Assembly: GCF_003953935.1 (NCBI RefSeq) | Contig: NZ_RXLQ01000011.1 | Location: 1-64,000 of the forward strand | Direction of reading: 5' to 3' | Length of the DNA: 64,000 nt | Source of the DNA: Massilia atriviolacea | GTDB lineage: Bacteria > Pseudomonadota > Gammaproteobacteria > Burkholderiales > Burkholderiaceae_D | Shown here: piece by piece, positions 33,220-49,970 of the stretch | How positions within the stretch are numbered: position 1 is the first letter of the stretch | How the letters are laid out: each line of letters begins with the position of its first letter | Notes under the pieces: generated by a model | Databases searched by the model: none | What the model was told of the DNA's origin: nothing | Seen by the model: the letters and a program-made list of their open reading frames with translations, nothing else | Translations under genes and position numbers: made by a program

Positions 33220-35796
33220 TCAGAAAAAATTCGCTTTCAGGCTCAATTTGAAGGTGCGGCCGTACTGCTCGTACTGGACGTTATACGGCTTCGTGCCTTG
33301 ATATACATAATAGGTTTGATTATTCAGGTTGATGCCCTCGAAGACCAGCTGCACACGCTTGTTGATCTGGTAGCCGAGCGAAAAATCGACCTGGCGCTGG
33401 GCATCGACATAGCGGTCCTGCGAGGCATCGAGCATGTCGTCCGCCACTTCCAGCAGATACGACGACTTGCGATTGAGCGCCAGGCGGGTGCTGAGCGGGC
33501 CGCTTTCGTAGCCGAGCATCAGGTTGAGGATCCGCTTCGACTGGCCGGGCAGGCGGATCTGGCGCGTCAACTGGCCGCCACTGGCCTTGTCGAAGCGGCC
33601 GATGGTGGCCTTGGCGTCGTTGAAGCTGGCGTTGGCGCCGACGATGATGCCGTTCCACGGCGCCGGCAGCATGCGCAGCGACTGCGAGTACGCCAGCTCG
33701 ATGCCGTTCACCCGCGCCTTGTCGCCGTTGGCGTAGCTGGTCGCGGTGGTATAGCCGGCCCACGCCCCGCTGCCCGCGAGGTCGGTGGTGTAGCTGAAGT
33801 TCTTGATGTCCTTCGAGTACAGGTAGGCCGACATGGCGCCGTCCGCGCCGAGCATGCGCTCGATGCCCAGGTCCAGGTTGGATGCTTCCAGCGGTTTCAG
33901 GTCGGGGTTGCCGATCACCGCCTCGGTATTGCTGGCCAGGCTGATACCCGGCGCCAGCTGGCTGAAGTTGGCGCGCACGACGGCGTTGGTCCACGCCGCC
34001 CGCACGCTGGTGTCCTTGTCGATGTCGAAGCGCGCCTGCACATTGGGCAGCCAGTTCGAATACGATTTGCTGCGCGAGAGCGGCTGCAGGCCATCTTCCG
34101 ACACTTGCCGGCCGCGCGCGGCGAAGCTGGTGCGCTCGTGGCGCATGCCGGCCAGCAGGCGCCAGCGGCCGATGTCGGCGCCGGCTTGCAGATAGGCGCT
34201 GTCGATATCCTCGTCCATGCTGAAGTCGTCGAGGTTCGACTCCTCCGTCAGCCTGGCGCCGGCGCGGTCCAGGCCAGACACCCGCGCGCGGATCGCGGCC
34301 GCATCCAGGCCCGGACCCAGGCTGGCGAAAGGATAATCGAGCGCACCCTGGGTGAACCCGCTCATCCCCACGGCGCCGGGGCCCCAGTAATTGCCGCTGG
34401 TCGCTTTGCTGCTGGTGTAGCCCCACTGCTCGGTGTCGTTTTCCTTGCTGCGGCGGCTGATCTTGATGCCGCCCTTGACGTCGGCGGCGGCCTGGCCCAG
34501 CGCCAGGCTGCGGCCCAGGTCGACCCTGACATGACGCTCGGCGTCGGCGCTGTCGCGCGCCTGCAGGGTGATCCCCTGCAGCTTGTAGCTGGCCGGGTCG
34601 GACAGGCTGGCAGGGCCGCTCAGGCGCGGCACCTCGGTGCCGGAGAAGCGCAGGCCGGCCACATTGGACGATGCGCGGAAGCGGCCATCGTTGATACTCT
34701 CCGGTGTAACTTCGGTGGCGCGGCTGGCGCCCCCCGAGGCGGCCAGTTTCCATTCGCCGAAGCGGGCCTCGCCGCCGGTCACGGCCGACGTGATGCGCTG
34801 CGTGTATTTGCGCTGGCGCAGGCGCCGTTCGGCGCGGGCGGTAAAGGGCGTATCGGGCGCCACGTGGTCCCCGCCGATATTGCTGATCGACAGACGGTCG
34901 CGCACTTCATCGTCCGAAAACTCGCTCACGAAGGTGCGCAGGAACAGCGACTGGCCCGCCTGCGGGCGGTAGTCGAGGTTCAGCGCCAGCGCATTGCGTT
35001 CGCGCTCGGGCAGGTAATTGCGCATCTCCAAACCGGACAGCTTGCCGCCGCTCCAGGCGCCGCCGGTTTCCACGTTATCCGAGCCGAACTTGCGCCGCTC
35101 GCCGCTGATGCCGGCCGCCACGCCGAGTTTCCCGTCCAGGAAGCGCTCGGCCCACAAGGCGCCGGCGTTGGGGCTGGTCTTGCCGGTATTCTGGTCGCGG
35201 CTCGCGCCCGCATGGAACGACAGCGCGGTGCCGGGCAAGTCGAAGGCCGACAGCGCCTTGACGTCGACCGAGCCGCCCAGCGAATTCGCATCCTGGTCGG
35301 GCATGAGGGTCTTGGAGACTTCCAGCGAGCGAATCAGGCCGGCCGGCAGCACATCGAGAGCGACCGCGCGGCGGCCCGCTTCCGGCGACGGCACCGAGGC
35401 GCCGTTGATGGTGACGGCGTTGTAATCGGGGCCCATGCCGCGTACCACGATGTAGCGGCCTTCGCCCTGGTCGCGCTGCACCGCCACGCCGGGCAGGCGG
35501 GCCAGGGCCTCGGCGGCGTTCTTGTCGGGCAGGCCGCCGATATCGTCGCTGCTGACGATGCTGACGATATTGTCGGCCTTCTGCTGCGCCGCCAGGGCGC
35601 GCTTCATGCTGGAGCGCTGGCCCGCGATGACGACGGTGTCGGCCGGGATGGCGCTTGCCTCGCTCGCGCCGGCGGCGCTGTCGGCCGCGTGGGCGGCGCC
35701 GCCGCACAGTTGCAGGATGCCGAAGGCAATGAAGGACAGGCGCGGAAGCCTGGCCGGCACTGCACGCTGACGCTGTTGTTGTTTGTCGCTGTTCAT
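33220..35796 (-). CDS. TonB-dependent outer-membrane receptor linked to phytase
   Basis: An 858-residue TonB-dependent receptor. Signal peptide through GGAAHA, then a TonB-box-like segment (DTVVIAGQR), the plug domain (about 55-170, including ALARLPGVAVQRDQGEGRYIVVRGMGP) and a C-terminal 22-strand barrel ending KLSLKANFF with terminal Phe. The plug sequence belongs to the large Caulobacter/Xanthomonas class of carbohydrate or catechol receptors that lack an N-terminal signalling domain. Being first in an operon with a phytase, it probably imports phytate, its lower inositol phosphates or a complexed metal; this is inference from context. Confidence 0.92.
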   Translation of the reverse strand: MNSDKQQQRQRAVPARLPRLSFIAFGILQLCGGAAHAADSAAGASEASAIPADTVVIAGQRSSMKRALAAQQKADNIVSIVSSDDIGGLPDKNAAEALARLPGVAVQRDQGEGRYIVVRGMGPDYNAVTINGASVPSPEAGRRAVALDVLPAGLIRSLEVSKTLMPDQDANSLGGSVDVKALSAFDLPGTALSFHAGASRDQNTGKTSPNAGALWAERFLDGKLGVAAGISGERRKFGSDNVETGGAWSGGKLSGLEMRNYLPERERNALALNLDYRPQAGQSLFLRTFVSEFSDDEVRDRLSISNIGGDHVAPDTPFTARAERRLRQRKYTQRITSAVTGGEARFGEWKLAASGGASRATEVTPESINDGRFRASSNVAGLRFSGTEVPRLSGPASLSDPASYKLQGITLQARDSADAERHVRVDLGRSLALGQAAADVKGGIKISRRSKENDTEQWGYTSSKATSGNYWGPGAVGMSGFTQGALDYPFASLGPGLDAAAIRARVSGLDRAGARLTEESNLDDFSMDEDIDSAYLQAGADIGRWRLLAGMRHERTSFAARGRQVSEDGLQPLSRSKSYSNWLPNVQARFDIDKDTSVRAAWTNAVVRANFSQLAPGISLASNTEAVIGNPDLKPLEASNLDLGIERMLGADGAMSAYLYSKDIKNFSYTTDLAGSGAWAGYTTATSYANGDKARVNGIELAYSQSLRMLPAPWNGIIVGANASFNDAKATIGRFDKASGGQLTRQIRLPGQSKRILNLMLGYESGPLSTRLALNRKSSYLLEVADDMLDASQDRYVDAQRQVDFSLGYQINKRVQLVFEGINLNNQTYYVYQGTKPYNVQYEQYGRTFKLSLKANFF

Positions 35797-35864: not shown

Positions 35865-36029
35865 GCAGGCCGCCACCAAGGCCGCTAGCGCCATTAACGG
35901 CCCCCGGTGAGCTGAAATGCCCCCTCCCCCGATGTCCACTTCGGTGCCTGTCCACTTCGGTGCCAGGTCTGACAATCGGACACGAGCTGATCCGCAAAGA
36001 CACGAAAGCAACTATTTAAGGCTGAGACC

Positions 36030-36541
36030 GTGTCCACTTCGGTGTCAGGTCTGACAATCGGACACAAACTGATCTGTGTCCACTTGGGTGCCAGGTCTGA
36101 CAATCGGACACGAGCTGATCCGCAAAGACACGAAAGCAACTATTTAAGGCTGAGACCGTGTCCACTTCGGTGTCAGGTCTGACAATCGGACACAAACTGA
36201 TCTGTGTCCACTTGGGTGCCAGGTCTGACAATCGGACACGAGCTGATCCGCAAAGACACGAAAGCAACTATTTAAGGCTGAGACCGTGTCCACTTCGGTG
36301 TCAGGTCTGACAATCGGACACAAACTGATCTGTGTCCACTTGGGTGCCAGGTCTGACAATCGGACACGAGCTGATCCGCAAAGACACGAAAGCAACTATT
36401 TAAGGCTGAGACCGTGTCCACTTCGGTGTCAGGTCTGACAATCGGACACAAACTGATCTGTGTCCACTTGGGTGCCAGGTCTGACAATCGGACACGAGCT
36501 GATCCGCAAAGACACGAAAGCAACTATTTAAGGCTGAGACC
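36030..36541. repeat. Four identical 128-bp tandem units
   Basis: Units start at 36030, 36158, 36286 and 36414 and read as identical. Each is box A (36 bp, ACTTCGGTGTC variant), a 10-bp spacer AAACTGATCT, box B (36 bp, ACTTGGGTGCC variant), a 10-bp spacer GAGCTGATCC and the 36-bp linker. A truncated unit precedes them (35933-36029) and a one-box unit follows (36542-36639). Complete identity implies recent expansion or ongoing homogenisation. Confidence 0.96.
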
Positions 36542-36639
36542 GTGTCCACTTCGGTGTCTGTCCACTTCGGTGTCAGGTCTGACAATCGGACACAAACTGA
36601 TCTGCAAAGACACGAAAACAACTATTTAAGGCTGAGACC

Positions 36640-36870
36640 GTGTCCGATTGTCAGACCTGGCACCGGGGTGGACAATTTAAGGCTGAGACCGTGTCCGATT
36701 GCCAGACCTGGCACCGGGGTGGACAAAGACTCGAAAACAACTATTTACGGCTGAGACCGTGTCCGATTGTCAGACCTGGCACCGGGGTGGACAGGGGTGG
36801 ACAAAGACACGAAAACAACTATTTAAGGCTGAGACCGTGTCCGATTGTCAGACCTGGCACCGGGGTGGAC
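36640..36870. repeat. Four reverse-oriented boxes with forward linkers
   Basis: Boxes at 36640-36673, 36691-36724, 36759-36792 and 36837-36870 are 34-bp reverse complements of the left-hand box type (GTGTCCGATTGTCAGACC ... GGGGTGGAC). The linkers between them (short at 36674-36690, full at 36725-36758 and 36803-36836) keep the same direction as on the left. A 10-bp duplication of the box end lies at 36793-36802. Confidence 0.93.
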
Positions 36871-36970
36871 ACGGGGTGAGCCGATCGGACTGGGGCCGCT
36901 GCGCTGTTTGCACCCCCGCCTGTCATCGTCCTGTCACGTGCGCGGGCTAGTATCGGAACGTATCACCCTC

Positions 36971-37921
36971 ATGCAAGGCTTCGGCCTTCCGCCCATGCTC
37001 CGTTCACATCGCACTCCGCTCGTCCTGGCCCTGCTGGCCTTTCTCGCCTGCTGCTTTTTATATGCGTTCGCCGGCGTGCCGAAGCCGCCGGCCGAGTGGA
37101 AGTGGATCGATATCGCCAGCGAGGCGAGCATCGCGCTGATGGCCGGCGTGTGGTTCGTGCTGGTCTTGAGCTCGCGCCCGCCCGGCCGCGTGACGGCGCT
37201 GCTGGCCGCCGGCCTGGCCGGCCTGATGCTGGGCGCCTGCGCCGACTGCCTCGATGAATTCTTCAGCGTGCCCAAAGGCCAGCTATGGAACCATGTGATC
37301 GAGAGCGGCCTGAGCCTGGCCGGCATGGCCGCCCTCACCTGCGGCCTGCTCGACTGGCGCCGCGAGCAGTTCATGCTCAACGAGCACCTGCACAAGCGCG
37401 AGCGCCTGTTCCGCGACCACCGCTCCTTCGATCCGCTCACGCAGGTGGGCGACGCCGACTACCTGCGCGCGCAGCTGCGCATCGAGCACGAACGCGGCAC
37501 CGGCCCGGCATGCTGCCTGCTGATGGTCGATATCGACAGCTTCCACCTGATTAACCGCAGCCACGGCCAGCGCGAAGGCGACCGCCTGCTGCAGGCGGTC
37601 ACCCATACCCTGCTCCTGAACCTGCGCCGCACCGACCTGCTGTGCCGCTACGCGGGCGACCGCTTCGCGATCCTGCTGCCGGCCACCGACGGCGATACCG
37701 CGCGCGCGCTGGCCGAGCAGTTGCGGCGCGCCGTGGCGACCCTGCGCCACCACACCAACGGCAGCGGAGAAGCGCTGCAGGTGACGGTGCGCTACGCGGT
37801 GCGCCATGTGGATATCGAGCCGCGCCAGCTGCTCAAGGAAATCAACCGCGCGCTGGAACGGCGCATGCCGCAGCCGCCAGCGGCGACGGAGGATGCCAGC
37901 AGCTTCGCCGCGCCCGCGTGA
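36971..37921 (+). CDS. Membrane protein with degenerate GGDEF domain
   Basis: About 316 residues. Four hydrophobic helices fill the first ~130 (TPLVLALLAFLACCFLYAFAG is the first), then a linker and a GGDEF-type domain. The signature reads AGDRF instead of GGDEF, the substrate region reads INRSHGQREGD instead of INDxxGHxxGD, and the DxLTGLxNR motif reads DPLTQVGDADYL. Cyclase activity is therefore unlikely. It may be a GTP or cyclic-di-GMP sensor or an inactive relic. The start is either ATG 36971 or ATG 36995; upstream in-frame codons lie in the repeat array. The 3' end overlaps or abuts the AraC gene. Confidence 0.78.
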   Translation: MQGFGLPPMLRSHRTPLVLALLAFLACCFLYAFAGVPKPPAEWKWIDIASEASIALMAGVWFVLVLSSRPPGRVTALLAAGLAGLMLGACADCLDEFFSVPKGQLWNHVIESGLSLAGMAALTCGLLDWRREQFMLNEHLHKRERLFRDHRSFDPLTQVGDADYLRAQLRIEHERGTGPACCLLMVDIDSFHLINRSHGQREGDRLLQAVTHTLLLNLRRTDLLCRYAGDRFAILLPATDGDTARALAEQLRRAVATLRHHTNGSGEALQVTVRYAVRHVDIEPRQLLKEINRALERRMPQPPAATEDASSFAAPA

Positions 37922-49763: not shown

Positions 49764-49970
49764 CCGGGGTCAGAGCTTTAACTTGCAACTTTTTGGCCGA
49801 AAAGACCGTCCGACGGTCCGCCCGGCAAGCTTGCTGCGGCGGGCGCCTGCCGCATGCCCGGTGCGCACCAAACGGCTTTCCGACAGGCGAGGATTGGCGT
49901 TGATAGATCGAAAATGTTTCGACTTAAAGCTCTGACCCCGGTTGTAGTAAAGGTCTGACTCCGGCTGTAG
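49764..49970. repeat. Inverted 18-bp repeats plus a degenerate third copy downstream of exonuclease III
   Basis: CCGGGGTCAGAGCTTTAA at 49764-49781 is exactly reverse-complemented at 49924-49941, flanking 142 bases with no gene. A further degenerate direct copy (GGTCTGACTCCGGCTGTAG, 49952-49970) follows the second arm (GCTCTGACCCCGGTTGTAG). This looks like a small dispersed or mobile repeat of the REP/MITE sort. It shares the GGTCTGAC core with the array at 35933-36870. Confidence 0.75.

What the first reader, a model, noticed from the sequence alone, without database searches (positions are those of the whole stretch)
35933..36870. Composite array in which hairpin boxes change orientation while linkers do not
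Four identical 128-bp tandem units (36030-36541) are built as 36-bp box, 10-bp spacer, 36-bp box, 10-bp spacer, 36-bp linker. From 36640 on, four boxes appear reverse-complemented, yet the linker ending AAGGCTGAGACC keeps its direction. Simple tandem duplication or inversion of a block cannot give this; individual boxes must have been inverted or inserted separately. Each box has outer (GTGTCC/GGACAC) and inner (TGTCAG/CTGACA) inverted repeats, so it could form a cruciform, be a substrate for a recombinase or transposase, or act as a multi-copy protein-binding or termination site. It lies in the promoter gap of a TonB receptor and a GGDEF-type protein.
Basis: partly seen in the sequence, partly recalled or inferred. 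Interest (0 to 1): 0.78.

Follow-up and report, generated by a model that had tools for sequence, protein, structure and literature searches.

The report
Transposase-end repeats grown into an array
A run of short DNA repeats between two bacterial genes is a local pile-up of the end repeats of a DNA-cutting transposase encoded elsewhere in the same genome, and its seams suggest that each added piece was joined at one exact site.

Summary
The array is real: 14 boxes, 10 forward then 4 reversed, linkers all in one direction. 927 of 940 nt tile from same-strand pieces of one 118-nt unit, + box, linker, − box. Duplicating "+L" and "L−" gives this pattern without any inversion. Of seven relatives with this locus, one carries a single +L−, one ++−−, one half a box, four none.

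The half-box occurs 256 times in the genome. The boxes are terminal repeats of a Y1 (HUH) transposase gene elsewhere in the genome, with + boxes on its left and − boxes on its right. It resembles the TIRYT / TnpA_Y1 subclass 2.1 kind; several relatives hold their own matched gene–repeat pairs.

The unusual part is the seams. Units mostly begin at one point, the outer TGTCC, joined to many different sequences with about chance-level overlap. I infer transposase cleavage 5′ of TGTCC and strand transfer; this is untested. A known kind in a new variant; no regulatory role was shown.

The parts
35933..36872 (.). whole array: 10 + boxes, 4 - boxes, linkers, and two partial 16-bp box repeats (35933-35948, 36543-36558)
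36030..36541 (+). four identical tandem units of 128 bp
35948..36593 (+). ten + boxes of 36 bp: 35948, 36030, 36076, 36158, 36204, 36286, 36332, 36414, 36460, 36558 (first bases)
36640..36872 (-). four - boxes of 36 bp: 36640, 36691, 36759, 36837 (first bases on the + strand)
36558..36675 (.). central + box, linker, - box unit whose same-strand pieces tile 927 of the 940 nt of the array
   Evidence: folds strongly
36594..36639 (+). central 46-nt linker, 30/46 identical in the same direction to the linker of the single +L- unit at this locus in G008
36077..36081 (+). example of the fixed outer end (TGTCC) joined to the interrupted linker ...ACTGATCTG
33220..35796 (-). TonB-dependent receptor gene (left neighbour)
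36971..37921 (+). GGDEF-domain protein gene (right neighbour); stretch in front of its start is conserved with and without the array

Best explanation
The array is a local expansion of one miniature, non-autonomous element made of two inverted terminal repeats around a short linker (+ box, linker, - box). The boxes are the terminal inverted repeats of a Y1 (HUH) transposase of the TIRYT / TnpA_Y1 subclass 2.1 kind whose gene lies elsewhere in the genome between + boxes and - boxes. SHOWN by sequence: the genome-wide family, the transposase gene flanked by the same boxes, matched gene-repeat pairs in several relatives, the single +L- unit at the same locus in a relative, tiling of the array by same-strand pieces, and an outer end mostly fixed at TGTCC with a variable inner end. 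INFERRED: the transposase cuts single-stranded DNA just 5' of TGTCC, holds the 5' end by its tyrosine and joins it to a free 3' end at a variable point, adding a partial unit (+L on the left, L- on the right); once 128-bp repeats existed, ordinary slippage or unequal exchange could multiply them. Box orientation changes once because the starting unit was an inverted pair, not because boxes flipped.
For: 256 half-boxes genome-wide, control 0. Transposase gene between seven + and three - boxes, NCBIfam REP_Tyr_transpos 88.5 bits over cut-off 80, HUH histidines 60/62 and Y119 invariant in 15 homologues, best PDB fold match 4er8, a REP-associated transposase on a REP hairpin. Homologues between + and - boxes in L084 and L112; flanking inverted repeats at 18 of 22 homologue loci; repeat variants match the genome's own gene in G015, G019 and G060. 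Order: 83 of 91 multi-box arrays in loci run + to -, 0 of 152 neighbours are -+. Same locus: 1+1 in G008, 2+2 in G002, remnant in G016, none in four. Tiling 927/940 nt and linker 30/46. Seams.
Against: Own arrays also hold -+ neighbours (20 of 222), and G002 has one -+ pair, so whole-unit duplication or other events occur too. 4 of 55 informative seams share 4 bases with the box end, and 19 of 261 boxes had no TGTCC at the expected place. Outer divergence falls elsewhere than within -1 to +2 of the TGTCC edge in 181 of 712 pairs, and is absent in 112; inner break points also clump at 0-1 nt (118 of 712). The single unit in G008 lacks a clear TGTCC edge and relatives' conserved edge is GGGGTCAG, so the edge is lineage-specific and was not quantified elsewhere. 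G008 has about 49 copies but no gene of this group above 98 bits, and several genomes with a full-length gene have 0-2 copies of this pattern. No cleavage was tested.
Confidence: 0.75

Rival explanations
1. The array grew only by replication slippage or template switching at hairpins and short direct repeats, without the transposase; the fixed edge is the foot of a hairpin where synthesis restarts.
For: Boxes carry GTGTCC at both ends in the same direction along +L-, giving 6-bp direct repeats; 4 of 55 seams show 4 shared bases; G before TGTCC in 110 of 242 boxes; four identical 128-bp units are what slippage makes.
Against: 43 of 55 informative seams share no base with the box end (about the three quarters expected by chance) and the other side is no better (67 of 102 with none, 74 expected).
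Confidence: 0.3
2. Individual boxes were inverted in place or inserted one by one.
For: Boxes face both ways while linkers do not.
Against: Same-strand tiling from one +L- unit; single +L- at this locus in G008; 0 of 152 -+ neighbours in loci, where free inversion would make -+ as common as +-.
Confidence: 0.05
3. The array is kept as a regulatory element of the TonB/GGDEF pair.
For: It lies in a divergent gap of about 1.2 kb and box number differs between species.
Against: Four relatives lack it; the stretch before GGDEF is conserved with and without it (4 sequences); no terminator-like and one promoter-like site against 0.5 expected; the same boxes lie in gaps of every kind (17 tandem, 11 convergent, 6 divergent of 34, home-made gene caller). 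Expression was not tested.
Confidence: 0.08
4. The array, or its copy number, is an assembly artefact.
For: The genome is a draft of 80 contigs and no reads were available.
Against: The same boxes in the same order occur in other assemblies, including G006 in one contig, and at this very locus in G002 and G008.
Confidence: 0.04

Closest known systems
TIRtron / TIRYT repeats (Di Nocera et al. 2013, PMC3733652; abstract, sections 14 and 16 and passages read)
   Same: Tyrosine transposase genes flanked by terminal inverted repeats that also occur dispersed, as dimers and clusters; a shared motif GGGGWSAS, which GGGGTCAG in relatives fits.
   Different: The window species' box reads GGTG[CT]CAG with an added outer TGTCC part; Massilia does not occur in the main text searched; arrays of half units with one exact edge are not described in the parts read.
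TnpA_Y1 subclass 2.1 (Quentin et al. 2018, PMC6006769; abstract, sections 11, 12 and part 1 of 15 read)
   Same: HUH and Y...NP motifs, long protein, C-terminal HTH_23/HTH_28-like end.
   Different: The survey found no REP-like sequences at subclass 2.1 genes, although it links the subclass to TIRYTs; here the gene has a large repeat family.
REPINs and REPIN clusters (Bertels and Rainey 2011, PMC3116915; passages and section 11 read)
   Same: Inverted pair of repeats around a spacer as the unit; clusters; link to a tyrosine transposase.
   Different: Their ordered clusters repeat whole REPINs with flanks; here most arrays repeat half units on each side of one centre.
BIMEs (abstract openings in search listings only, PMC2817692)
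   Same: Mosaics of palindromic repeats in both orientations.
   Different: BIME repeats alternate in orientation; here orientation usually changes once, + to -.

Membership tests
TIRYT / TIRtron repeat family | Y1 tyrosine transposase gene flanked by inverted repeats | tested here: met
   L179: + boxes, gene, - boxes; 18 of 22 homologue loci
TIRYT / TIRtron repeat family | the same repeats dispersed in the genome as dimers and clusters | tested here: met
   256 half-boxes; 32 multi-box arrays and 7 singles in the fetched stretches
TIRYT / TIRtron repeat family | motif GGGGWSAS in the repeat (shared by some TIRs only) | tested here: inconclusive
   GGGGTCAG in most boxes and at many homologues; the window species has GGTG[CT]CAG
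TnpA_Y1 subclass 2.1 | HUH and Y...NP motifs with a C-terminal helix-turn-helix | tested here: met
   H60, H62, Y119, N123, P124 invariant in 15; HTH_23/HTH_28 at E 4e-5 and 7e-5, just under the Pfam cut-offs
TnpA_Y1 subclass 2.1 | position in the subclass tree | not tested
   no reference tree was built
canonical REP (GTAG/GTGG-tagged) | GT[AG]G tetranucleotide at the foot of the hairpin | tested here: not met
   no GTAG or GTGG at the foot in the box consensus
REPIN | inverted repeat pair that folds as one hairpin | tested here: met
   z -4.5 and -5.2; 52 simple +- pairs among 91 multi-box arrays
REPIN | built of canonical REP sequences | tested here: not met
   see the tag above
TIRYT / TIRtron repeat family | mobilised by the cognate transposase (cleavage and strand transfer at the box) | not testable with these tools
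   needs purified protein and single-stranded substrates

The most novel reading that the evidence does not exclude
These arrays are a readable record of transposase action: a subclass 2.1 HUH enzyme adds half units one at a time by cutting exactly 5' of its terminal repeat (TGTCC) and joining it without overlap to almost any nearby 3' end, a growth mode different from whole-REPIN duplication and from slippage.
Probability: 0.4. Interest if true: 0.72.

Novelty: new variant of a known kind. Interest (0 to 1): 0.5.

Why it matters
How REP- and TIR-like families multiply and form clusters is left open in the papers read; Bertels and Rainey invoke a second mechanism for clusters (passage). Arrays whose seams share one exact edge suggest a concrete cut site for a transposase subclass that a large survey found without REP-like repeats, and supply ready substrates for an assay. 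They also explain, without inversions, a pattern that looks paradoxical on paper.

Tried and rejected
Covariation between the two inner arms of the linker: not supported in the own genome (154 matches, shuffled mean 166, reached by 4867 of 5000 shuffles) and weak in relatives (525 against 474, reached by 11 of 5000). Intrinsic terminators: none. Rfam: no family at the gathering threshold in the window. PDB by sequence: no hit at E 0.1; a fold comparison was needed. Preference for convergent gaps: 11 convergent and 6 divergent of 34 arrays against 4 and 7 of 25 window gaps, too few and from a home-made gene caller. The fixed edge in relatives was only listed, not quantified. Empty-site reading: in the empty relatives a different short stretch stands where the array is, so the exact insertion point and any target duplication could not be read. 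A first pattern for a second family, AAAGGTCTGACCCC, gave 0 matches; the next one worked. Literature: four searches (RAYT with Massilia; RAYT families; RAYT with Oxalobacteraceae; TnpAREP with REPtron) failed or timed out, so statements about what is in print rest and the sections read.

Full report
WHAT IS THERE. The array at 35933-36872 is as described: four identical 128-bp units, ten + boxes, four − boxes from 36640 on, and nine linker ends all on the + strand. Two details change. The inner inverted repeat is intact in only 5 of 14 boxes. Single boxes fold no better, or only somewhat better, than shuffles, while a + box, linker and − box together fold strongly (z −4.5 and −5.2). The neighbours are a TonB receptor and a GGDEF protein, divergently placed.

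A GENOME-WIDE FAMILY. The half-box GGTCTGACAATCGGACA occurs 256 times at up to 2 mismatches in the 7.36-Mb genome (139 forward, 117 reverse, reversed control 0). I fetched 40 stretches: 37 chosen from the places listed (one search lists only the first 100 of its 256) and 3 around other Y1 genes. With the window they hold 261 boxes at up to 3 mismatches, in 39 clusters of which 7 are single boxes. Matching coordinates identify G002 as Massilia mucilaginosa, G008 as M. rubra and G060 as M. eurypsychrophila. As G002 and G008 are in the window's genus, the window is probably from a Massilia relative; this is inference, the genome being unnamed.

THE TRANSPOSASE. Of four Y1 transposase genes in the genome, one on contig C64 encodes 289 aa and lies between seven + boxes on its left and three − boxes on its right. 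It scores 88.5 bits for NCBIfam REP_Tyr_transpos (cut-off 80), has Y1_Tnp and a C-terminal helix-turn-helix just under the Pfam cut-off, and its HUH histidines (60, 62) and tyrosine 119 are invariant in 15 aligned homologues. Its model (mean pLDDT 75, pTM 0.59) has 4er8, a REP-associated transposase bound to a REP hairpin, as its best PDB match (TM 0.69 by target length). Homologues in two of the stretches also sit between + and − boxes (L084, L112). Of 22 homologue loci examined for flanking inverted repeats (own gene included), 18 have them, one of these (L198) weakly; L197, L204 and L208 do not, and L203 ends near its contig end. The repeat variant matches the genome's own gene: GTCGGAGGCGAC in G015, GTCAGTTCCGAC in G019, and in G060 both GTCAGGTCTGAC and GTCAGTGCCGAC, each beside its own gene. 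Of the 7 genomes of 148 with 20 or more copies of the family pattern, four have a full-length gene of this group (G000, G015, G019, G060), two a broken or cut-off one (G002, G006), and one (G008) none above 98 bits. Conversely several genomes with a full-length gene (G007, G005, G009, G063, G121 and others) have 0-2 copies of this pattern; their flanking repeats differ.

WHY BOXES CHANGE DIRECTION AND LINKERS DO NOT. In the stretches 83 of 91 multi-box arrays start + and end −, 52 are simple +− pairs, and none of 152 neighbouring pairs is −+. In the own genome 26 of 32 multi-box arrays start + and end −, with 20 of 222 neighbouring pairs −+ (the transposase locus counts there as two arrays); G002 has at least one −+ pair. 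So the basic unit is + linker −. Duplicating its left part and its right part gives + L + L − L −. I tiled the window array with same-strand pieces of its central unit, about 10% mismatch allowed: 16 pieces cover 927 of 940 nt. The same locus in seven relatives with a near full-length receptor gene (73-92% identical) shows the history: G008 has exactly one + linker −, its 46-nt linker 30/46 identical to the window's in the same direction (shuffled mean 11.7, maximum 23 of 5000); G002 has ++−−; G016 has half a box; G010, G004, G013 and G007 have none. On a tree of the receptor gene G000, G002 and G016 group together (98/97); G008 and the empty G010/G004/G013 group lie outside in unresolved order. 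That fits one insertion, growth in two lineages and decay in one.

THE SEAMS. Between same-orientation boxes of one array the inner flank is similar (0.72-0.95 per position) and the outer flank is not (0.37-0.52; 642 pairs). Across loci of this genome, identity jumps from 0.29 to 0.83 at the first T of TGTCC. Walking outward without assuming an edge, 286 of 712 pairs first diverge exactly there and 419 within −1 to +2 of it; 112 show no break and 181 break elsewhere. Inner break points spread over 0-53 nt, with 118 of 712 at 0-1 and 169 without a break. The sequence in front of TGTCC may be any point of a linker or even the middle of another box. Of 165 non-terminal boxes with an exact TGTCC there are 109 distinct flanks; for 55 an unbroken copy exists in the same array, and its continuation shares 0 bases with the box end in 43, 1 in 1, 2 in 7 and 4 in 4. 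On the other side 67 of 102 flanks share nothing with the array's own terminal flank (74 expected). Homology-driven exchange or slippage should leave more overlap. A Y1 enzyme that cuts 5′ of TGTCC and transfers that 5′ end to a free 3′ end would leave this picture; that step is inference. In relatives the conserved outer edge is GGGGTCAG, and the single unit in G008 lacks a clear TGTCC edge, so the TGTCC edge looks derived in this lineage.

A SECOND FAMILY. The genome holds another repeat, CGGGGTCAGAGCTTTAA (120 copies at up to 2 mismatches), which flanks a second Y1 gene on contig C5 in the same + … − layout. Of 33 places fetched, 32 start + and end −. One pair lies in this window at 49765-49781 and 49924-49940.

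WHAT IT IS CALLED. Di Nocera et al. 2013 named such genes TIRYT and the units TIRtrons, with dispersed terminal repeats in dimers and clusters and, in some, a motif GGGGWSAS. Quentin et al. 2018 place 20 of 26 TIRYT examples in TnpA_Y1 subclass 2.1 and found no REP-like sequences at subclass 2.1 genes. Ordered REPIN clusters in Pseudomonas fluorescens SBW25 repeat whole REPINs. By its features the object belongs with the TIRYT repeats; it works like a REPIN but is not built of canonical REPs, lacking the GT[AG]G tag. Placement in subclass 2.1 rests on motifs, not on a tree. Arrays of half units with one exact edge are not described in the parts read; four further literature searches failed.

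FUNCTION. I read it as a by-product of a mobile element, not as a regulator: four relatives lack it, the stretch before the GGDEF start is conserved with and without it (4 sequences aligned), and there is no terminator-like site. Expression was not tested. The count of four identical 128-bp units rests on a draft assembly and could be off.

Noticed in passing
window 49765-49781 (+) and 49924-49940 (-); G000:C5:117631-118606: A second, unrelated repeat family (CGGGGTCAGAGCTTTAA, 120 copies) that flanks a second Y1 transposase gene (227 aa) in + ... - layout; one pair lies in this window.
   Followed up: partly
L203 (G002:C378) and L210 (G006:C1): The cognate transposase gene is cut off or broken in two genomes that still hold 94 and 20 repeats, and none of this group above 98 bits was found in G008 with 49 repeats, so repeat families can outlive their gene.
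   Followed up: no
L217 (G002), left edge of its array: A run of short GGTGTCCTCCCCC-like repeats precedes the first + box; box parts seem to multiply there on a smaller scale.
   Followed up: no
L220-L222, same locus without array: Where the array would be, the empty relatives carry a different GC-rich stretch of about 40 nt that may form a hairpin by eye.
   Followed up: no
G000:C64:217038-217370 and G000:C34:146147-146497: Two further Y1 transposase genes without significant flanking inverted repeats (best E 0.056).
   Followed up: partly
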